From: Neckera pumila
Taxonomy: Eukaryota; Streptophyta; Bryopsida; Hypnales; Neckeraceae
Direction: 5' to 3'
Assembly (NCBI GenBank): GCA_963969595.1
Contig: OZ018409.1
Location: 44,839,282 to 44,903,281, forward strand
DNA: 64,000 bases
Position numbers and translations under genes: made by a program. Positions 3,638 to 55,547 of this stretch are shown one piece after another. The notes beneath the pieces were generated by a model, which made no database searches, was not told where the DNA came from, and was given only the letters and a program-made list of their open reading frames with translations. How positions within the stretch are numbered: position 1 is the first letter of the stretch; each line of letters begins with the position of its first letter.

Positions 3638-4559
3638 TTAACCCCTAAAGTCCCAAGGCCACTTTTGTGTCAAAAACCACTCAAAACTGTCATTTTGGCT
3701 GCGTTCACTCAAGAACACAAAAAAACATTTTTTTTTAAATCTAATCATAGGATCTTGTACTTCACTTGTCAAAGATCATGTGGTAAAAATTTCATGAAGT
3801 TTGACCGTATAGATTGGAAGATATTAGCATTCAAAGTTGAAAAAGAAAGTTTTTTTGAACACGGACCTGCAATTTTAGATGCCTTTGACCGCCATTTGTG
3901 AAATTTTTTGCTACAAACTTTGAATTTAGAATTTTTTATGTTGAAGATGTAAGTTGAAAGTCTACAAAAAAAATTTCAAAAAAAAATACTTGATTTTCAT
4001 TCTTTAAAAAATTATAGTAGAAGTAGGTCCAAGATTGAAAAAAAAACTAAATTGTTAATAGCTCTTAGATGGGATTGAAATACAATAATCCCAATGGTGA
4101 GATTGTTTTAGCAAGCAAATACAACATTATTAAAACAAAATTGTAAGAAATTGTGAAAATTGCATTAAAAAATGAATCCTACAAGTTATTTTTTCAAAAA
4201 GATGCTTAGATTGCCCAAAAAACAAGATTGTCCATAACTTGCTCATTATTAGTCCAAATAAAATGAATCAAAGCTTCACATGTAGACAAAAATATGTAGT
4301 TTCAAAGAAAAAAAATTAAAATTTATTTTGACTTTTTGCAAAAAAAATTGTGCTACCCGCCAAATTCAGTTTGAGGCTTTTTGTGGTATAACTTTTGCTA
4401 CCGGGCACCAATTGAAATGAAAATTATATTTCCACAAAGCTAATCAATTTTTCTATCTTATGGAAAAGTTTTTAAAAGTTTCACTAAAAATTGAGCCTGT
4501 AGGTACGTGCCCGAAATTTGATTTGTCCCCCGAGGGGACACTGGGACTTTAGGGGTTAA
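3638..4559. mobile_element. TTAA-flanked piggyBac-like element, family A (copy A1)
   Basis: The element 3642-4555 (914 bp) lies between two TTAA copies. Its ends are inverted: CCCCTAAAGTCCCA on the left and TGGGACTTTAGGGG on the right. It has no transposase ORF and so is non-autonomous. Just inside the right end is a 15-bp hairpin GTCCCCCGAGGGGAC (4525-4539), shared with copies A3 and A4. TTAA target duplication plus CCC-type ends are the diagnostic features of the piggyBac superfamily. Confidence 0.8.
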
Positions 4560-4575
4560 ATAATTTCAGGAGAGT

Positions 4576-4828
4576 AAGATTATGGACCAGGGAGAACTGA
4601 CCCCTGTATTGTCCAAGTTTTATCCTTGCAAAAGACACTGAAATTCTTTATTTGCCACATTTGATCAAAATTTGCAATTTCTGAATTCATATTTGCAATC
4701 AGAGGCCCCAAATTAGTTAAGAGATGTGAAGAAATACAAAATTTAAGCGGCACAAAATAGGGGGCAGTTTTTACATTTACCCTTTGATAGGGCAATAGAG
4801 GGGTCAATCCTCCCCTGGCAAGATTATG
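4576..4828. mobile_element. Mutator-like MITE with a perfect 9-bp target duplication
   Basis: The element 4585-4819 (235 bp) is flanked by identical 9-bp repeats AAGATTATG (4576-4584 and 4820-4828). Its ends are inverted: GACCAGGGAGAACTGACCCC versus GGGGTCAATCCTCCCCTGG. A 9-bp duplication points to a MULE. A second copy is at 36180-36416, and a diverged piece lies near 16320-16500. Confidence 0.8.
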
Positions 4829-6666
4829 CAACTGGAGTACAGTACAGTGCCTTACCAAAAGTTTTTGTACTCTCTTTTTCTTTTCATACAAACACCTCCA
4901 TTTTCCAATGTTATTTTTCACAATTTTGATGCAATTCTTATATGATTGCATTCCTGTGTAGTTGCAATCATGCATACCAAATTTCAATTTAAAACAAGCA
5001 AAAATCCATTATTGGTGAATTTTTTCATTTCATTTTCATGGTTTTACAAGATAGTTTATTTGAAAACATTGAAATGAATTTTTTAAATTTGATTGCGGAT
5101 ACATGTAAGGAACATTTATACACACATCTTCCCAACCTTCAGCAAGCATCCTCTAAAATGTTCCACAATTCTTTCTAGGAAGAATTCAATGTAAGGTGTC
5201 ATATGACCAAACTTTGTGAAATAGATATCTTTATATTTTTGCTAGTTTTTGCTATTTCACCCTCACACTATAACTAATTTTGTACATTTGAACATGATGG
5301 TACAATTACCTTGCCAAATTCTACTTACAATAAAAAAAATAATCTATTTTCCCAAATTAGGACTTTGCCACCCCAACATTGAAATCTCTATAGAGAACTG
5401 TGAAACTTTTTGGAGATGCTTGTTGAAGGAAACATGTGAGTATGGATGTTCATTATCATTTTTTTTAATAAATGATCACGTAAAATCATAAAAATAAAAT
5501 AAAAAAACTCACCAGAAAATGGAGTTTTGCTTTTTTGCAGTTGAAATTTGGCATACAAGATCGATACTATAGAGGAATGCAGTGATGCAAGAATTACATC
5601 AAAATTTTAGAAAATTCCATTTGAAAATAGAAGTGTTTGTATAGAAAACAACTATTTCTTGGCGTAGCAAGATTTCCATCATCACATGCTTCATATGTAA
5701 CTCCCATGACGTAGATACATGGCTCCATGTACTACTTAAATGCAATCAACAACTTATTCATGCACTCAAAACTAGAAGACATAACAAAGCAGTATGGGAA
5801 CTGAGAAAGCTAATATTATCCATCGAAAAAACTAGAAACTACATTCTCATGAATGCAGGAACATTCAACAACAACCCACAAGAAAATATAGTCCCTATGG
5901 CTTCTACCTTGCTCTTGCATAAGACAAAGATGTCACTGCAACGCTAGATTTAAACCGGATATCCTCTGTGTTAATGGATTCTCCTATCACAACAACCCAC
6001 CAACTAACCCACACAATAATCTCACAATACAATTCATCAAATTCACATACTCTAATGATAGATTCTCACAAATAACAATGACTAATAAAATTTAAAAATA
6101 CCAACCACTGATAAATAGTGTCATTGCCCAAAGATGGAAAGTAGACCCACTAATTATAATTACAGCAGGAGCTAGAGGTACAATACATGCCCCATCAATG
6201 AAACTCCTTAAAACCAAACTCAAATTATCCGAAACCGCTTTGAAACACACTTTTAAAGCAATCAATATCATTGACATACAATATGCTGGTTCAATCATAT
6301 TATATAAAAGAAAAAATAGAAAACAACCAACCACTTCCAAGAGAATAAAGAATATATAAAACACAACAACAACCACCTTAATCTTCTATCTGGTTTGCCC
6401 AACAACCTTAATCTTGGTTATTTTTTTTTGGTTAGTGATACTAGTGTCTATTCTCGAAAAGGGAGAGTAATTTTGCATCAATGGCCTTTGATCCAATGAA
6501 CATTGGCTCATTGTCATTACAAACAGACACTTTATACATGCGAGCCTTCTTTGAAGACTAGAGTTTCTATCTATCTATAGGAACAAAAAGGCAATTTTAG
6601 AACTTTTGGTAAGGCATTGTACAATACGTTTCAATAGAAGCCATTGATTGAAAATGAAAATTAAGG
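4829..6666. other. AT-rich intergenic, nothing recognised
   Basis: No gene or clear repeat end was found. Short readings on both strands lack any family resemblance. Confidence 0.4.
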
Positions 6667-6667
6667 T

Positions 6668-6955
6668 AGTCATTAGAAGAGATTTGAGGCCTCCAAGAGC
6701 CCACGAGTTATCCTGCGTTCCCGCAGCATTCCCAAGCTGTGGAATGCAGGAAAGCTGTTGCGCTGATGTGGTCGAGAGAGTGCCACATCATTTTTGAAAA
6801 AAAAAAAAAGAATGCCTAAAATGATATTTAGAACATATATATATTTTTTTTTTTTTTTATAAAATTCCGACAGCCCATACCAGCTGTTTTTAGATTTGGC
6901 CAGATTAGGGAACGGGCCTGAAATGGCCCTCCAATGCCCTCCAATCTCTTCTAAT
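6668..6955. mobile_element. MITE of the ATTAGA...TCTAAT family
   Basis: The ends are inverted, ATTAGAAGAGATTTGAGG and CAATCTCTTCTAAT. Inside are TTCCCGCAG and a gcgctgatgtgg block shared with the copy at 33429-33697. No target duplication could be recognised, so the superfamily is open. Confidence 0.55.
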
Positions 6956-7105
6956 GCTCCTCCAAAAGGGACCATTTAAGTACTAATTGCCTTTTGAGGG
7001 ATTCTAAACGCCTTGAGATAATTTTTAGTAAATTTTTATAGAAAGAAAAATAGAATTAGCATTTAACCCATAGTATTTTATGATTGCAAAAAATATATCT
7101 AGGGA

Positions 7106-7372
7106 TGCATTAGAAAAAAAAGCAGCCCTCCGGAGGGCTATTCCAGATTGACATGGCCAAGCTATTTCAAGCTTGCCCTGCAATCTTGAAATGGTTGCTT
7201 GTGAGCAGTCACCATAGCTGACTGCTCGCCGAAACAGTCCACTTTCGTACTTTTTTGAATTTATTGAATTGTTTTTTGTTTGTTTTTTCTTTTTTTTTTC
7301 TTTTTAAAAAAAATTTATTTGCAATTCGCAATTCACAATTTCAGGATCCCCCGGAGGACTCATCTCTTCTCT
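7106..7372. mobile_element. MITE of the ATTAGA...TCTAAT family, second subtype
   Basis: It starts ATTAGAAAAAAAAGCAGCCC and ends TCTTCTCTAAT. The interior block CCAGATTGACATGGCCAA and the CTGACTGCTCGCCGA block are shared with the copy at 13698-14033. Confidence 0.55.
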
Positions 7373-24222: not shown

Positions 24223-27200
24223 TCACAAATGGATCCATTTCAAAGGGTCGAGTGCTTCTCCATTCTTGCGAACTGCACATCCAAAGAATTCAACACAGAA
24301 AACTGAACTTAATATCGTTCGTTGATTCTATTTACAAACAGGAACTCACAGAAGTTGAGTATTCATTGGAAGTTGGAAGTTGTAGTAAGCAGCAATTGAG
24401 GTGAACTACCCAACGATTTCAAATAGCCTCAAAAGTAACAGCATCAAAATTGCACACCTTCAAAATGCAGATGTGGGCCTGTCGCGCGTCCAGTTGCACC
24501 AACAGCTGCCACTTGCTGCCCTTTTACCACTTGCTGTAGGCAACACAAGCACACACCAAGAAGTCAATACCAGTGGCAACAGGAAATACAAATAGCATCA
24601 GATAGCCCCCAGAATATGGTAGGAACCCATTCCAGGGGCTTCCAGTCATTTTTTTTGTGTGGTTTGGATTATTAAAATGGAGTCTCTTTTGATGAATCTT
24701 ATCCTTGTTTTGGGAGCACTCGAATGCATTGATGTATGGATTATTTTGACACCATATGAAAGTTTTATGAACCGTTGAAGTTTGAAGTAGTAGTGTACCA
24801 ATCACTAGTAGTGTACAAATTTAGACTACCCTTAAACTGAGTATTGCAACTACAGTGTATCTCACGGATGCAACTTTAACTGGAATAGAACCTAGAAGTA
24901 TCTCATTTCTTACGAGTCACGTGTACGCATGACACTTGCATTGTAAAGGGGGGACTTCTCAACCCACCCAAATGCAATTCAACCTCACATGAAAGCTGCA
25001 GAATAAGCAAGAATTGATGGCTTAAATTCAAAGTCACTAGGTCTACCAAGAATGAATAGCACAGCAATGTCCATACCTGCCCCACCCGGGAATGAATAGC
25101 ACAGCAATGTCCATATCTTGTTACGAATCCCCCTTCATGCTGGATAGTCACCAAATATCCATAACTGAAAAGGCACCAGGGATGTCAGTTCAGAAGGGAT
25201 TGCAAAGATCAGGAATTACTGTAACTATGGAGAACACAGTTGTAGAACTTCAACCATATCTTTCAGGAGCTTGCCTGTGCTTGAACCAGAAGCAAAGCTA
25301 ACTTCACAACATCAATATGCCATCCGTTCCTCAAAATCTGGACTACATGTAAGATCCACAATAACTAAAACAGAAAGAATGACAATCTGACATGCATCAG
25401 GATGTCAATCAATAGTAACTGAGAAGCATGATAATTAGAATGATATCTCACCCGCCACTCCACCCAGCAAATGTTACCGTGCCTCTGTCAGCTGCCAAGA
25501 TTGGAGTTCCAGGATCCGCCGCTACATCAACGCCCTTAAAGAGGTACCCAAAAATCTAACCCTCAGTCTAGGTATAGTTCCAGTTTGAGCTGACATGGTG
25601 CATTAAGTTTCTCAAAGCACAAGAGAATTCACCAATATATTAAACGAGAGAGGAATGCCCCAAAACCGCATATCGTAGTGATACTGATCGTAGATTACAG
25701 TCCTCACAACCCTTGTCAGTACATAGAGAGAACTTTTGTGAGATGCTGAACTGTGCAATAAATAAAGAGCATTACTTACGTATGCAATTGGATTCCCAGG
25801 ATACAATTACCATTCTAATCCTGATACTCATAACATAAGGACCAATACTCCTCGATATTGAATACATAGCTAAAAATCTAAGAAGCACAAATCGTTTGAT
25901 CGACTTACCTCGTGAAAAGCACCCCAACGCCAGCCATAAGTACTGCTCACAAATCTGCATTCATTACCAACTTCAGTTCTTATAAACTTTTCTTGACGAC
26001 CGACAATATGCGACATCTCAGCACCGACATTCAGAAGCAATGAGAACAAGCCAGGTAAGACATCAAGATTCCTGACTCACATAACGTGCAGAGCTCAGTT
26101 ATATCATCGATAATCAAACGATTACTTCAAGGAAAAATTGAGCATATAAAATGTACGTAGTCATACCCCTCTGTGACAGGCGAACTGAACCGCATCCACT
26201 TATCTTGCACAAGCTGAAATCCCTTCCGTTTTCTTTTCCACCGCCCTGGTGCATTGATGTTCCAGGATCACAGGCAGGATTGTGAGGTCGATACACGCAA
26301 CCAGAGAAGGTAATGAATAGATGAACACATACGTAAGAATCATACAAACTAACACCCTATTTTTAGCTCTCCAACCCTTCAATAACACAGATCAAGATAA
26401 CATTCCTGAAACATTGAACAGAGTGGCTCCAGATCCTCATATAGTTCGCATGTCAAAGCTAATACGACTACAAAGGAGTGAGGTCTCAAAATGGATACTT
26501 AAGCCAAGTTGACATTAAACAGGTAAAACACCTTCAAGTTTTAAATTTCCAGATGTGAGTTGATGCTTGAGAGTCTGCTCTGGACCTCCAACTCCCAGCC
26601 CATATTGCAAACCAGAACGTTGTCTTGAAAAGAGCAGCCGGCCGGTGCGGCGTCGACCTGATCGAATCTCTGGAAGTTCCCTGGATGATAAGCCTGGAAC
26701 AAACAAAAATAATACTTCCTTTGTGCTCTCAGAGTCGACTTGCATAGATTACACTTGTTGAAAAAAATCTAGCAGTTGTAACCAAACAAGTACCTTCGGA
26801 CACAGCGAGAACGTCGCCCTCAAAAATATTCTTGTTCCGCAAGTTGTTCATCCTCTGCAATTCCTCTGAGCTAAGGCTGTACAGAAAATTGCCCAAGAAA
26901 AAGGTCAAGAACGCATTTAAAACACCACTTGCTAAAAGTTGAGTTCCAAAACTACCCATACATGTTATCACCAAATACTTGATATTACAAGGTTTACATC
27001 CAGCCAAACAATAAGAAGTAAAGATCTGCTCCTCACCCATGTTCAGAGGCAATATCGATCAAGGTATCTCCGTATTGAACGCGTACAGTTTCCAGACGGG
27101 GAATTGGATGGACCCTCTGAGACTTCTGAGGCCGAGGGCATGCACTCATCACAGGTTTGACAGACTTGAGAGGTTGCAAAGAATTTCCGGAATCACAGTC

Positions 27201-28441
27201 AATTAAAGTCTTCCGTTCTTGCAGAGTCGCCTTTCGACCAAGCACCGCGAGCTCTGCACTACGCCGATCTATCTTCAAAACACTGAGAAAGATCCCAACG
27301 ATTCATCAGATAAATACTAAGATCCCTTAATACCATGTTCCGTAACTTTCAAATCTGTAATCAACGACAAGTGAAAGTGGCTGACGAGAGTTTAATATTC
27401 CTAGAACTGATTACGAAAGATTGTACACGGAAGCAAGTGGACCCTGTTCCACGGTTCGATTAAGCCAAGAAAGAAAGGCACAAATAGAAAAAGCTGCCAC
27501 CAGTGTAAAAAAGAATTCCAGACACTCATCCCAAAATTCAGTTTGAAAAAAGGAACTGATCTATGAATGAACACATCTGAGAGATGTCTAACAAACCTGC
27601 CAGAGTAGATGACATCATCTTTCAAGTTGTTAAGTTTCTTCAACGCATTTACTGTTGTCCCATACTTCTCTGCTAGCCATGCAAGCGACTCTCCGTCGCC
27701 CACTCTGTGCTCCCGGTTATTATTACACAAGACTTGTCCTAAAAGGACAAGAGTTTTACTAAGACTCATAATCTCAGGCCTCAGCAAAAATGATCTTAAA
27801 GTATTTCTTGTTGAGAGCTCCCTGTGCACAGAGCTTGCTTTTACTCTTGAAACAGTCGTCCGACTAGTTGAAGGGGAGGTATAGCGGCTGCTATCGCGAG
27901 GTATCGATATCCGACTGCCCACCCGTAGACTATCAGGGTTCCTCAGACTAGGATTTGCACTCAAAAGAGTCCTGTCACACAAGGCACGCGTGTAGATTCT
28001 CAAGTTTAAGAACTGAAAACTCAAAAGTTCAAATAGCTCGGACATAATGCTCGAGATCAGCTCTCTTCTCGCAAGTCCACCTGAATCAAAAATAATCTAC
28101 AACTCTATAGCCACGCTCTAGTCAATCCAAGTAGTAGATGACTTCAAAAAACGTCTAGACCACAGGATGTAAACCTAACGGTTGTTAAATTTTCAGTTTT
28201 GTGTAAACTGAAGAGGACAAGAGCCGGATAAAGAACCAGTGGTATGTAATCGCACAATCAATGGTGTTCTGCTTTACCGAGTGCTTAAAAGACAACAAAT
28301 AGAAAACAAATGCAAGAAGCCAAGCAAGGGTGCACCGATTTACCTTAAGTCAACATTATGACGTCGTCCGATATCATAAAGCCAATCGCCTCGTTGCACT
28401 ATATGCTCGGTACATGATCCAACGGCAGTAGCGGAACTCAT
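24223..28441 (-). CDS. LysM-M23 (LytM-type) peptidoglycan endopeptidase, 11 exons
   Basis: Predicted zinc peptidase that cuts peptide cross-links of peptidoglycan, anchored by LysM sugar-binding domains. Exons: 28441-28344, 27971-27597, 27282-27037, 26876-26794, 26693-26532, 26245-26167, 25954-25909, 25534-25452, 25164-25077, 24533-24458, 24272-24223. All introns are GT-AG; the sum is 1386 nt, 461 residues, with every phase consistent. LysM1 is about 13-57 (HIVQRGDWLYDIG), LysM2 121-162 (HRVGDGESLAWLA), LysM3 224-265 (VRVQYGDTLIDIA). A basic linker follows. The M23 domain starts near 345 with SSTYGWRWG. Zinc ligands H362, D366 (FHEGVD) and H443 (HLHFE), plus catalytic H410 and H441, are all present. 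The end VRKNGEALDPLKWIHL is typical of M23. The start used is the first in-frame ATG; a targeting exon upstream is likely. The architecture is known from bacteria and cyanobacteria; a plastid peptidoglycan role is inferred. Confidence 0.9.
25051..25122 (-). repeat. Direct repeat spanning an exon end and its splice donor
   Basis: A 26-bp sequence starting TATGGACATTGCTG occurs at the end of the ninth LysM-M23 exon (about 25122-25097) and again immediately after the donor (about 25076-25051), 46 bp apart. The donor GTATGG is the beginning of the second copy, so a small tandem duplication has built or rebuilt the splice site. Confidence 0.75.
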
Positions 28442-29950
28442 AGCTGTCGAACTCAAAATATCAAAGTTTTCGCTTAACCGGCTCCTCGTCCCAATTGTGG
28501 GCCTGGACACCACGAAGATCCATGACTATGCAATCCTACTGCTGTCTGCAATTGCTTTCTGGGAAGGTTACAACACGTAGGAAAACTAAATGGATGCAGG
28601 AGTAGACTACAAGAGGATACACGAAGGATGAGTACTGAATAGACTACAATGACCTTGCGCTTGGTGGTGAACAAGGAAATTGACCACAGGCTCTCCATTA
28701 ACCCTTACATTTTCTTCAGTTTCTTACAAATTATGTGCTATTGAAGTGACAGTTGCCCAATACTCATGATAAGCAATAGATGTCGGGGTTTCAAAACAAT
28801 GTAGTTCTGTTGGATTCTGCACTAGTGTCCGAGCTTAACATGCTTTGTGAGAAATTCACGGTGTGGTCACGCATACCTGATCGTTTTCAACTCCAGCGAG
28901 CTTGGGAGACAGCCACTTGAACATCATCCTCTCGCATACACTCCCGAGATAGCTCTTCGTCTGTTATCTCAAGCTTCCCTGTTTGCACATCTGACCTCAC
29001 TCTTCTCTCTACAACAACCATAAGTATTAGTAACCGCAAATTCAAAATGAAGAGACGGAAAATCATACACAGGTTATTCTCCAGGATCAGTTAGCATATC
29101 AGTCCCGAAGACTCGACTGCCTGCCCACACGACACATCTCCTCGCCGAGGATATATACACGAAGACCTAATGCTTCTCCCTTCGAGGGCAGGACAACCCC
29201 TGCACAAAAGAGTTCTTCAAACGAGCATTCGCCCCGACATTGCACTGTTGTACTTTGCTTCTGACCCGAAAAGAGTCAGAGAATCAATACAGAAAATCTT
29301 TAAAGATCGTGACAAAACTCAATCCTAACGAGACATGAATCGACTTGCCCCCCGTTTCAGCGACTTTGAATCTAGGCACATTCACATGCTAATGCTACAA
29401 GAAGTTTCAAAGCTACAATATCTCACCACACTTGCAGCCCACACTACACTCAGGAGTCGCAAAAAGAGTAAATACAGGTGGAATACAAGGCACCCCTCCC
29501 AATGCAAGAACAACGCAAAAACCGTCAAGAGACCACACTCCTCCCTATTCGTTCCACAAATCGCACCACGAATCCAAAATTAAATCTACAGTCTCCAAGA
29601 ATAAGCAATAAAAGCCACAAACGAGAAGAAACTGAGCTGACCAAAGCAATGCACGACGGATTGGCCCCAAATTGTAGCTCCAGAGCGCTCAAGGCAGCAC
29701 CATTTTGGGCAATCAAAAGCTTAAACGACGCCCACGTGAAAAACTCGCATTCACAACGAGACTGACGCGGCGAGTACGTTACGAAGCAGGGGTGCAGTGC
29801 AATGCTGGTGGCAGAGAGATGGCAACGAAGCTCATCTCTCCGACGACTAGGCAACGACGCTCCTGGCTCGGCTGTCCATCTCCGAAATTAGGGTTTCAAT
29901 TCAAACGCTCCGTTCAAAACGCTTCCCGTAAACACCGAGGTTTTAGGGTG
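28442..29950 (-). promoter_or_regulatory. Unresolved 5' region of the LysM-M23 gene
   Basis: This is GC-richer than intergenic DNA. On the minus strand, 28698-28474 is an open reading starting MESLWSISLFTTKRK, rich in Ser/Leu/Lys and poor in acidic residues, like an organelle-targeting peptide. It is one frame off the LysM reading and would need an intron. Another exon-like piece at about 29005-28895 reads GKLEITDEELSRECMRED between an AG acceptor and a GTATGC donor, but has a stop before the donor. A telo-box (AAACCCTAATTT, minus strand, about 29888-29900) marks the likely promoter/leader end. Confidence 0.4.
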
Positions 29951-35650: not shown

Positions 35651-35863
35651 TTAGTAGATACGAGTTGTGGAAGGCTTGTAACACCAACATTTCAAAGGTA
35701 TAAAGATACTAACAAAACTTTCCAAAACTTATTCCACAATTAGCTCCATTTTTATTAAATCTGACTTTCCTAGACTCTATTGTTTAAAGAGTAAAGAACC
35801 TTGAACTGGACTTTGCAGGGCGGAAAAACTACTTCATTGGAATTTTGCTTGTACCATATAACC

Positions 35864-36223
35864 ATGGCCACACCACCAAGCTTTGTTGATGTTAACAGCG
35901 AGGACATGAATGCCTCTCTTTGGGGAGAGCTGCAAAATTTCATTGACCTCTCCATGATCTATGCCAAGCTCCCCTTAGCGCCGTTCTTTCGCCTGCGCCA
36001 AGTCTGTAAGGAGTGGAATTGCCTGGCTTCCAATCGCCTGTTTCTAAAACAAAAGTTCAAACACTACAGTATAGAAGCCCTGTTTTTTATGATATTAGCT
36101 GAAAACATCAAAATCTGGTCAAAGAACAGGACGAAGTTGGAGAAGCTTCAACCATGGAGAAGCTTCGGGCTGATCAAATGGCCAGGGAGGACCGACCCCT
36201 CTATTGCCCCATCAGAAGGGTAA
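35864..36223 (+). pseudogene. F-box protein N-terminus, cut short by a MITE
   Basis: An ATG in good context (accATGGcc, 35864) opens 119 residues. Residues about 18-63 form a plant F-box: LWGELQNFIDLSMIYAKLPL, then FFRLRQVCKEWNCL and NRLFLKQ. F-box proteins bind SKP1 in SCF ubiquitin ligases and normally continue for 300-400 residues with kelch or other repeats. Here the reading enters the Mutator-like MITE at 36180, and its last 14 codons and stop are MITE sequence. No C-terminal domain was recognised beyond the MITE. It is probably a pseudogene; a short F-box-only protein remains possible. Confidence 0.7.
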
Positions 36224-42442: not shown

Positions 42443-44899
42443 ATGCCGTGGGCACGGTGCGCTAGCGTGAACCTCCACCACCTCGTTGTCGCAGTCGTGC
42501 TCTGCCTGCTCTCCTCCCCAGTCGCAGGTCAGTCTCTTCACACTCTTCCCTTTCCCTACCCCCCTCCGTCATTGCAATTGCGCCAATTTGACATGCTCTG
42601 TGGCAATGGCAATGGCAATGGCAGAGGCCCATTCGATCGGCGCCGTGTACGGGAGAAACGGAGATAACATCCCGAGCGCCACCGACGCCGCGGCGCTCAT
42701 GCAAGCGAACTCCATCATGCGCGTGCGCATCTACGACCACGACAAGGACGTTCTGCAAGCGTTCGCCAGCACGCAAGTACGCGTGATCATCGCCGTCACG
42801 AACGACGAAATCTCCGATCTCGCCTCCGGAACGTCTTCCTCAGATTCTTGGGTGAAGTCCAACATCAGCCCTTACATCACCACCACGAACATCAACGCCA
42901 TCGCCGTCGGTAATGAGGTGCTCATCACAGACGCTACTCTAGCGCCTCACTTAGTCCCCGCCATGCAAAACCTCCAAACCTCACTTGCATCCCAAGGCTA
43001 CAACTCAGTGAAAGTCTCGGCGCCTCACGGACTCGGCATCCTGCAGCTTTCGTACCCGCCTTCCGCCGGCGCCTTCTTCGACAGCTTGCAAGGAGTAATA
43101 CAACCCTTGATTGAGTTTCTCGATTCTACGGGCTCCTTCTTCATGCTCAACGTGTACCCTTACTATCTTTACCTCAACGGCGCGGATAGCATTTCTTTGG
43201 ACTATGCGCTTTTCAACACAGACTCTCCAGTGGTGGACTCCACGACGGGGTTACAATACTTGAGCTTGTACGACGCGCAAGTCGACGCGCTCGTGTCTGC
43301 AATGGCCAAGCTGAACTACAGCAATGTTGGTATTGTTGTTACAGAGACCGGGTGGCCGTCCGAAGGCGACTCGGTTAGTGAGCCTGCTGCGAATTACCAG
43401 AACGCCAGGACTTACAATCAGCATCTGGTGCAGAGGACGATGAACAACTCAGGAACGCCGTTGCGACCAAAAGCAGACATCCCCGCGTACATCGTCTCGC
43501 TCTATGATGAAGATCTGCGGTCGTCGCCGCCTGTTTCGAATCGCCATTGGGGGTTATTTTATGGCAATGGGAGCAGCAAGTATGACTTCGAGTATCTGAC
43601 GGGTGCCACTACTAGTGGTGGTGGTGGTGGCGGTGGCGGGGGTGGTGGCGGGGGTGAACCAGGAAGTCCGCCATCGCCTGGTACACCACCAGCTCCAAGC
43701 GGCGTGAATACTTGGTGCGTTGCGAAGCCTGGGGCTGACAACAGCAGCTTGCAACAGGTGCGTGGACATGCTTTAACCCTAATTCCTGCGCTTGTTGCAG
43801 CTTTCTGCGATCTCTACAAGAAAAGGAATACCTGCAATGACTCTCGAACGGTAATTTGCAGTTTTCCTTGAATGGGCTTCTAACACTCAAGGTCCATGTT
43901 TTTGCACTGTTTTTTCGACACGTTGGAATCGGTTTTGCACTCCGCACTTTTGCATTGGTTTTCGAACGTTGCTTCAACGATCTTGTAGCGTTTCTTCTCC
44001 TATTTCAGGATTCCATCATTTTGTTCTCATTGCGAACGACTTGTAAGACTGTCACGAGAACTATTGTAAATGTAAATGTCGGAATCGGTTTCTTTTGCTG
44101 CGTTTTTTGCAGTTCCGTGTGCTGTTGGGGGAACTGATGAATTCGGGTTTGGGGATTGGGAATTAGGGTATAGATTGGGCGTGTGGAGCAGGGAAGGCGA
44201 TGTGCAATCCGATTCAGCCCGGAGGCGGTTGCTACCTTCCCAACACGCTGGTTTCGCATGCATCCTACGCCTTCAATATTCACTACCATTTCTTCCAAAC
44301 CGACCAAAGGTCTTGTATCTTCGGTGGCGATTCCGAGCTCACTACTGTCGATCCTAGTGAGTGCCTGCAGCCAAAACCCTAAACCTTGGGGGGTCTTTGA
44401 TGCTTTGCTGCAGACCGATACATGGGGATTCATTGGACATGCGCTACATGTATTCCTCATGCCACAGCTTCTTATGTGCAATGTCTGATTTAACAAAGTA
44501 AGTAGTTGGTATCTCTACCTGTAGTTATGTTATTGCAGTTGGCTTACTTCGGAATGAGATCCTAACTCTGGCCTTCTTGTAAATTTTATGTAGGTTACGG
44601 ATCATGCATTTACGTAGCAAGGTACTTTGAAGTTTTGAACCTTTCTCTCATGTGTGAAACTACAGCTGATCATTCCTTCCACGCTGATGAAAAACAACGA
44701 ATAAAACCAAAATTTCATGTTGTGCGAATTGAGTTTACGGAAAGAGTGCCAACCTAATATCTACCCCTCTGTTTCCATGTTTTGTGTTGGTGGTTGCAGC
44801 TCGGCCACAGGAAGGATGGACGCGGTGTCATCATGGACAAGCTTCCTGGTATTCTTTCTTGCGACTGCATTTTTGCTGTACCCTGCGGCGACAATCTGA
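42443..44899 (+). CDS. GPI-anchored glucan endo-1,3-beta-glucosidase (GH17 + X8), five exons
   Basis: Hydrolyses beta-1,3-glucan (callose) at the outer face of the plasma membrane or at plasmodesmata. Exons: 42443-42527, 42625-43757, 44167-44356, 44594-44621, 44800-44899; GT-AG introns, phases consistent, 511 residues. Residues 1-28 are a signal peptide (LVVAVVLCLLSSPVA). GH17 spans about 30-355, from SIGAVYGRNGDN; the proton donor is E126 (AVGNEVL) and the nucleophile E269 (VTETGWPSEGD). A run of 13 Gly (360-372) and a Pro-rich stretch make a linker. The X8/CBM43 module starts at W392 (TWCVAKPGA), continues WACGAGKAMCNPIQPGGGC across exon 3, and ends YGSCIYVA. The C-terminus is hydrophobic (FLVFFLATAFLLY), a GPI signal. 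Start: the ATG that begins the signal peptide. All catalytic residues are present, so it looks functional. Confidence 0.95.
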
Positions 44900-54371: not shown

Positions 54372-55097
54372 GGATTTTTCATCCGGCTCATTGTTTCATC
54401 GTTTCATCCAATTTTATCTCCTCTTTCAGTCGTGATTTACGTTGGGCAATACCCTTATCTTTAGGCATTGCGCCAAATAATTTGCCCTCCTTGTCGAGCT
54501 CTGCCCTCCTCGTCGGCCGATTATTTGGAGCAATGCCCTCCTCTGCGGGCATTGCCCTATACATAATGTTTGCAAATACCAGGTGGGAATGGACCTTTAG
54601 CAGCCTCTGGAGGGCTGAAAAATTTCCTAACGGCCCACTTCAGCTTGTGCTGCTTTGTTACTCCTGCTTCATTAATTCGTTGCTTCTGCACAAAACTTGA
54701 GGAGGTTCTATTTGTTCATTTATTTTTGCATTTACATCTGTTCTAGATTACACATTTTTAATTTAGCTAACCTTCAAAAGAAACTTTAAAACAAAAGCAA
54801 TATAAAGATGAATGACAAAGTAAAAGCAAAAGGAAAGAAAATTACTTTAATTGAAATTGAAGTAGGCTTGATTGTGAACTACCCCTCAATAAAACAAACA
54901 AATTACTTTTACTTTTGTCTAAACTTTTACATTAATAAACATTACTTCTGAAAAACAAAGTAAAAGTTGTTTTTGAAATACATATAAATTGCTATTTCAT
55001 TTAGATTTCTTTCACTCACTCAATTCACTTCATTTCTCAAAATTTTCTAAGTTAACTGTCAACTTTCAATTTAAACAATATCTCTCATATTTGAATA
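54372..55097. other. Intergenic, upstream of the SUMO-like gene
   Basis: AT-rich leader-like DNA leads into the ATG at 55098. No core promoter motif could be fixed with confidence. Confidence 0.35.
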
Positions 55098-55547
55098 ATG
55101 GCAAATCAACAAGATAATAGAATTGTGCTCTTACCTGTGGACATTACCGTTACTTTAAACAAATCTATCAATCAAGATGCTTCATTTCAAAACCAATTTG
55201 AAGATCCTCCATTTCAATGTCAAAGTCTTGATCCAAGCTTTATACATATCATAGTCCAAAATCAGCAAGGAAGACAAATGACTTTCAAGATCAAAACTGA
55301 TAAACCTTTGGGCAAATTAATGCATATGTATTGCTCGTTAAATTCTTTGGATCCACAAAAAGCTAGATTCTCTTTCATTGGCACAAATCTTGAAGAAGAA
55401 AAATCCGCAAATGATTTTCAAATGCAGGATGGTAACCAAATTGATGTTGTTCTTCCGCAACTAGAGGCTTCATCTTTGAGAAGAAAAATCCGCAAATCTT
55501 CAAGAAGAAAAATTTGCAAAGCTTCAAGAAGAAAAATAAGCAAATGA
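55098..55547 (+). CDS. SUMO-like (ubiquitin-fold) protein with altered C-terminus
   Basis: 149 residues. About 48-122 fit the SUMO beta-grasp fold: FIHIIVQNQQGRQMTFKIK, then LGKLMHMYC, RFSFIGTNLEEEKSANDFQM and QDGNQIDVVL, with the spacing of SUMO (LMNAYC, F.F.G, EMEDGD.ID). SUMO proteins are attached to lysines of targets through a C-terminal Gly-Gly. Here no GG follows; the protein ends in a basic tail of three RRKI repeats (about 129-148). A partial internal duplication explains this: the DNA coding for the fold's last strand recurs after the stop (55548-55610) and leads to another possible end, DFHIPS, at about 55663. It may be a SUMO-derived non-conjugating protein or a decaying copy. Confidence 0.6.
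   Translation: MANQQDNRIVLLPVDITVTLNKSINQDASFQNQFEDPPFQCQSLDPSFIHIIVQNQQGRQMTFKIKTDKPLGKLMHMYCSLNSLDPQKARFSFIGTNLEEEKSANDFQMQDGNQIDVVLPQLEASSLRRKIRKSSRRKICKASRRKISK

What the first reader, a model, noticed from the sequence alone, without database searches (positions are those of the whole stretch)
24223..28441. A plant gene for a three-LysM M23 peptidoglycan endopeptidase with an intact active site
Eleven exons join in frame to give LysM x3 plus an M23/LytM domain with H362, D366, H410, H441 and H443. M23 peptidases cut peptidoglycan cross-links and I know of no such enzyme in flowering plants. It may remodel the plastid peptidoglycan wall retained in mosses and some other lineages, or act on bacteria. 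Spliceosomal introns argue against contamination.
Basis: partly seen in the sequence, partly recalled or inferred. Interest (0 to 1): 0.9.

Follow-up and report, generated by a model that had tools for sequence, protein, structure and literature searches.

The report
Moss enzyme that cuts chloroplast wall
This is a moss copy of an already described plant gene, DipM, whose enzyme is thought to cut the leftover bacterial-type wall around the chloroplast so that the chloroplast can divide; it looks real and intact, but the family was reported in another moss in 2014.

Summary
In detail: on the minus strand 11 exons join in frame with GT..AG introns into three LysM domains plus an M23/LytM domain with an intact active site. 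The gene is the orthologue of Physcomitrium patens DipM1/DipM2 (75-78% identity; published primers match). Miyagishima et al. 2014 (PMC4015805) showed that P. patens DipM digests peptidoglycan, coats chloroplasts and is needed for their division. The same genome has matches to class A PBP, MraY and MurJ. Additions: orthologues in gymnosperms, which the 2014 survey did not find in seed plants; a linker motif in 34 of 34 plant/algal DipMs, absent from 86 other proteins and 109 bacterial M23 frames; a second, LysM-less, cyanobacterial-type M23 gene in the same genome. Cyanobacterial origin of DipM's own M23 domain is neither shown nor rejected.

The parts
   Evidence: P. patens DipM1/DipM2 forward primers match at 28927 and 28922 with 3/22 and 2/23 mismatches; similar starts in P0004, P0006, P0007. 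Splice choice inferred
   Evidence: P0001 and P0002; acceptor 28525 inferred
27597..27971 (-). coding exon 3: end of LysM1 and LysM2
27037..27282 (-). coding exon 4: linker and start of LysM3
26794..26876 (-). coding exon 5: end of LysM3
26532..26693 (-). coding exon 6: linker
26629..26664 (-). motif RxGxRRTxRxLF (here RSGRRRTGRLLF) in the linker
   Evidence: coordinates worked out by hand
26167..26245 (-). coding exon 7: linker (RWKRKRKGF...)
25909..25954 (-). coding exon 8: M23 with first zinc ligand H407
25452..25534 (-). coding exon 9: M23 with D411
25077..25164 (-). coding exon 10: M23 with H455
24458..24533 (-). coding exon 11: M23 with H486 and H488
24223..24272 (-). coding exon 12: C-terminus LDPLKWIHL and stop
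   Evidence: DipM1 reverse primer matches at 24223 with 3/22 mismatches

Best explanation
The gene is the moss orthologue of P. patens DipM: a nucleus-encoded protein carried to the chloroplast envelope, where three LysM domains bind the thin peptidoglycan wall and the zinc-dependent M23/LytM domain cuts its peptide bridges, so that the wall can be split after the FtsZ ring forms. Shown here: gene structure, domains, intact residues, orthology, one DipM locus in the genome, and matches to PBP, MraY and MurJ in the same genome. Shown elsewhere for P. patens: peptidoglycan digestion, chloroplast-surface location, division defect of the double mutant. Inferred: that this species' protein behaves alike, the exact bond cut, and its place between the two envelope membranes.
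For: 75-79% identity to Physcomitrium and Ceratodon proteins; primer matches; Pfam LysM x3 and full M23; shared start motif in P. patens, Marchantia and Ginkgo; M23 part of the Ceratodon model nearest in Foldseek to solved M23 peptidases, rank 2 being the LytM domain of Caulobacter DipM; P. patens zymogram, location and knockout; PBP, MraY, MurJ matches in the same genome; listed relatives are mosses, liverworts, lycophytes, charophytes and gymnosperms, with no angiosperm named.
Against: No RNA or protein evidence from this species. I ran no targeting predictor; for P. patens the 2014 paper's prediction found no transit or signal peptide, although the protein was processed, and DipM1-HA covered the whole chloroplast rather than a division ring. 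None of the PBP, MraY and MurJ matches passes its family's cut-off, as expected of exon-by-exon matching but not proof of function; Ddl gave only four weak matches (best E 1.5e-6); MurA-G were not searched, so the full pathway was not shown.
Confidence: 0.88

Rival explanations
1. A secreted or cytosolic defence enzyme that lyses invading bacteria, using LysM to bind their peptidoglycan.
For: LysM and M23 are also parts of bacteriolytic enzymes (lysostaphin among the structural matches); some plant LysM proteins serve immunity (passage of PMC9434261).
Against: P. patens DipM1-HA lies on chloroplasts and its loss gives a division defect; the LysM-M23 relatives were listed in lineages with plastid wall genes and no angiosperm was named.
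Confidence: 0.06
2. A catalytically silent activator of other wall hydrolases, as NlpD/EnvC are for amidases.
For: LytM domains of EnvC are among the close structural matches.
Against: All five zinc and catalytic residues are kept; the P. patens orthologue is active alone in a zymogram.
Confidence: 0.04
3. Bacterial contamination or a dead copy.
For: None found.
Against: Introns in a chromosome-scale contig of 47,456,442 bases, moss relatives as best hits, no frame break in 461 codons.
Confidence: 0.01

Closest known systems
Physcomitrium patens DipM1 and DipM2 (Miyagishima et al. 2014, PMC4015805)
   Same: LysM plus M23/LytM, 75-78% identity, similar start (MVFKW...) and end (LDPLKWVRL), active-site residues kept
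   Different: One DipM locus found in this genome, two genes in P. patens; the P. patens DipM1 record (P0004, recognised by its primer-matching ends) lacks the LysM1 that the window gene keeps
Bacterial DipM (Caulobacter, cyanobacteria)
   Same: LysM repeats plus LytM; Foldseek match to the Caulobacter DipM LytM domain 7qrl, E 2.7e-13, 34% identity; 59 of 59 cyanobacterial genomes searched have a match to the DipM alignment, mostly in its M23 part
   Different: Linker motif RxGxRRTxRxLF absent from 109 bacterial M23 reading frames; M23 trees do not join plants with cyanobacteria, but do not reject it
E. coli NlpD and EnvC
   Same: LytM domain; NlpD has LysM too (PMC4015805 passages)
   Different: NlpD does not hydrolyse peptidoglycan and both act as amidase activators; the moss protein keeps the catalytic residues
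LysM-less cyanobacterial-type plant M23 peptidase (second gene of this genome, L097)
   Same: M23 domain, same genome; relatives in mosses, Selaginella, Cryptomeria and Klebsormidium
   Different: No LysM found by Pfam in its close relatives P0121 and P0124; not hit by the Ceratodon DipM query at E 0.001; 44-50% identity to cyanobacterial proteins

Membership tests
Peptidase family M23 (LytM) | M23 domain over the full profile | tested here: met
   PF01551 E 7.6e-35, positions 2-96 of 96
Peptidase family M23 (LytM) | HxxxD and HxH plus further catalytic His (motif recalled) | tested here: met
   H407, D411, H455, H486, H488 of the 506-residue model
Peptidase family M23 (LytM) | peptidase activity | not testable with these tools
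   assayed only for the P. patens orthologue (PMC4015805 section 5)
DipM of plastid-bearing eukaryotes | LysM repeats before a C-terminal M23 domain | tested here: met
DipM of plastid-bearing eukaryotes | orthology with P. patens DipM1/2 | tested here: met
   streptophyte M23 domains one clade 100/92, window beside P0003
DipM of plastid-bearing eukaryotes | chloroplast envelope location and role in division | not testable with these tools
   known for P. patens
DipM of plastid-bearing eukaryotes | descent from cyanobacterial DipM | tested here: inconclusive
   plants not joined with cyanobacteria in the trees; one clade not rejected, AU p 0.347, 0.224, 0.217
NlpD-type activator | LytM domain without hydrolase residues (recalled) | tested here: not met
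   active site intact

The most novel reading that the evidence does not exclude
Plants that keep a plastid wall run two separate M23 peptidases: DipM, with a lineage-specific basic linker motif and possibly not of cyanobacterial descent, and a second, LysM-less enzyme inherited from the cyanobacterial ancestor. Both persist into gymnosperms and were lost on the way to angiosperms, so that wall cutting, and not only wall making, continued in seed plants.
Probability: 0.4. Interest if true: 0.55.

Novelty: new member of a known kind. Interest (0 to 1): 0.33.

Why it matters
It shows the wall-splitting gene of plastid division in a further moss, here as a single locus, which would make knockout simpler than in Physcomitrium. 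Gymnosperm orthologues extend a family reported absent from seed plants and fit recent evidence for peptidoglycan synthesis in Picea abies (PMC12681378, passages). The second M23 gene is an unexamined candidate for plastid wall turnover.

Tried and rejected
Contamination: rejected (introns, moss relatives). Action on bacteria: no support. Against my exon 1: P0001 and P0002 themselves begin inside exon 2, the acceptor at 28525 has a poor pyrimidine tract, and other joins are open; RNA must decide.

Origin of the M23 domain: not settled. In one search (108 rows, quick) 6 of 7 cyanobacterial loci formed a clade away from plants; (96 rows; 103 rows) plants stood beside an MMETSP transcript, and also beside unnamed environmental rows, with weak deep forks; AU tests did not reject union. 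Rows dropped: odd-numbered Bacillota of the 80 loci were thinned from then on; of 37 loci L098-L134 only 24 gave a domain of the required length (reasons not examined); L102-L105 were then left out. The best named cyanobacterium of the profile search, a Gloeomargaritaceae protein (P0246), grouped with other cyanobacteria, not with plants.

Motif: P0038, environmental and near plants in the trees, has only a loose form (RRTKRHL), and P0036 and P0243, also near plants, lack the strict form; among the 82 proteins first listed one (P0244, LysM part only) has it. Ddl: weak matches only. Structure: the linker with the motif is unordered in the model (pLDDT under 50 at 307-360), so no mechanism for it. 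Literature: M23 with Physcomitri* and peptidoglycan, 0 papers; four of five terms on lytic transglycosylase/VanY and moss chloroplast division, 0 papers; Utsunomiya et al. 2021 on moss peptidoglycan hydrolases is not held and may treat related enzymes.

Full report
What is there. The minus strand of 24223-28927 carries a split gene. Pfam finds three LysM stretches and a full-length M23 domain. A sequence search of solved structures lists 42 distinct sequences, led by M23 peptidases and including Caulobacter DipM.

The 5' end. At 28927 the window reads MMFKWLSPKLAGVENDQ before a donor, like MVFKWPTLR...DQ in P0004, MVWEWLWPN in Marchantia and MGWEWLNFQN in Ginkgo. Joining 28877 to the acceptor at 28525 gives 506 residues. 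One search lists other open joins, and P0001 and P0002 begin inside exon 2, so this model needs RNA.

Who it is. The nearest proteins are mosses: Ceratodon purpureus 79% over 100%, Physcomitrium patens 78% over 93% and 75% over 91%, Sphagnum jensenii 73% over 79%. P0004 has both ends given by the DipM1 primers, so I take it as DipM1, and P0003 as DipM2. The window's genome is held: 339,505,838 bases in 18 contigs, window on C2. The Ceratodon protein finds 9 exon matches, all at this locus, so I found one DipM locus.

What it does. Miyagishima et al. 2014 (PMC4015805; seen here: outline and abstract, most of the Background, sections 5, 8, 12, 17, 21, 26 and search passages) report that recombinant P. 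patens DipM clears peptidoglycan in a zymogram, that DipM1-HA lies over the chloroplast surface, and that the double mutant has fewer, larger chloroplasts while FtsZ rings still form. The window gene keeps the catalytic residues. In the same genome I found several-exon matches to class A PBP (5 of 5 matches at C2:39804485-39809672, best E 6.4e-20), MraY (4 of 6 matches at C3:31110696-31112610, best E 9.8e-20) and MurJ (3 of 4 matches at C1:26181891-26183791, best E 4.5e-35). None passes its family's cut-off for a whole protein. Ddl gave only four weak matches, and MurA-G were not searched. The mechanism, wall splitting in plastid division, therefore rests on orthology.

Distribution. [quoted passage not shown] Here the best 120 hits include Ginkgo (Gb_30821; species read from the prefix, recalled), Cryptomeria japonica and Taxus chinensis, besides liverworts, lycophytes, Chara, Closterium and SM000255 (Spirogloea, recalled). 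No angiosperm is named in the best 120, but many rows have no name; three of these (P0011, P0017, P0018) fell with conifers in the tree. A library search for DipM with gymnosperm, peptidoglycan and plastid found one paper, which has DipM once, in its reference list. In the Picea abies paper DipM occurs 0 times (listing) and M23, LysM and endopeptidase 0 times (passages only). So I found no report of gymnosperm DipM in the papers searched. On walls in angiosperms the papers differ: PMC12681378 states that no bifunctional PBP is known there (passages), PMC10784329 counts PBP-family orthologues in Asparagus and Citrus (passages), and PMC9954125 claims a peptidoglycan layer in angiosperm envelopes (title, abstract start and passages).

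A plant-specific element. Between LysM3 and M23 lies RxGxRRTxRxLF. It is in 34 of 34 plant/algal DipM proteins (P0001-P0033 and P0035), in 0 of the other 86 proteins of that call and in 0 of 109 bacterial reading frames with an M23 hit. In the AlphaFold model of the Ceratodon protein (mean pLDDT 69.6, pTM 0.33, 34 sequences) the LysM and M23 domains are confident and this linker is not. A binding or targeting role is a guess.

Origin. The streptophyte M23 domains form one clade (100/92), with an MMETSP transcript (P0031, organism not shown) as sister (100/88). They do not group with cyanobacterial domains, yet holding them together is not rejected (AU p 0.347 and 0.224; 0.217). With 124 columns this is undecided. 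The 2014 suggestion of cyanobacterial descent rested on BLAST.

A second M23 gene. PF01551 gives four matches in the genome, two at this locus and two at C2:24169849-24170657 (L097). The exons there spell an M23 peptidase; my joined translation is 90% identical to an unnamed transcript-sized protein (P0121), 79% to Ceratodon, 75% to P. patens, 52% to Selaginella, 46% to Cryptomeria, 48% to Klebsormidium nitens and 44-50% to named cyanobacteria. Of the best 120 rows, 17 name a prokaryote and all 17 are cyanobacteria (some genus placements recalled); no angiosperm is named. Pfam finds M23 and no LysM in P0121 and P0124. A search for M23 with Physcomitri* and peptidoglycan found no paper.

Verdict. 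A real, intact-looking new moss member of a known enzyme family with known function. Interest is modest for the gene itself; the gymnosperm orthologues, the linker motif and the second M23 gene are worth following.

Noticed in passing
L097 about 4280-7112 (G000:C2:24164000-24173900): A second M23 peptidase gene without LysM, of cyanobacterial type, with relatives in mosses, Selaginella, Cryptomeria and Klebsormidium.
   Followed up: partly
window 26629-26664 (minus strand): Motif RxGxRRTxRxLF in the linker: 34 of 34 plant/algal DipMs, 0 of 86 other proteins, 0 of 109 bacterial M23 frames.
   Followed up: partly
P0004 (P. patens DipM1 record): Lacks the first LysM that the window gene and P0002 keep; paralogue loss or a gene-model error.
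   Followed up: no
window 25050-25118: A 29-base direct repeat (97%, spacing 40) straddles the donor of coding exon 10, so the intron begins with a copy of exon sequence.
   Followed up: no
window 42471-43868 (+): Long open frame with glycosyl hydrolase family 17 (PF00332, E 1.5e-74), in the most GC-rich 2-kb block of the window.
   Followed up: no
window 55095-55544 (+): SUMO/ubiquitin-like open frame (PF11976, E 1.8e-15) with a repetitive basic tail.
   Followed up: no
window 35795-36220 (+): Weak F-box match, 20.6 bits against a cut-off of 20.5 (PF00646).
   Followed up: no
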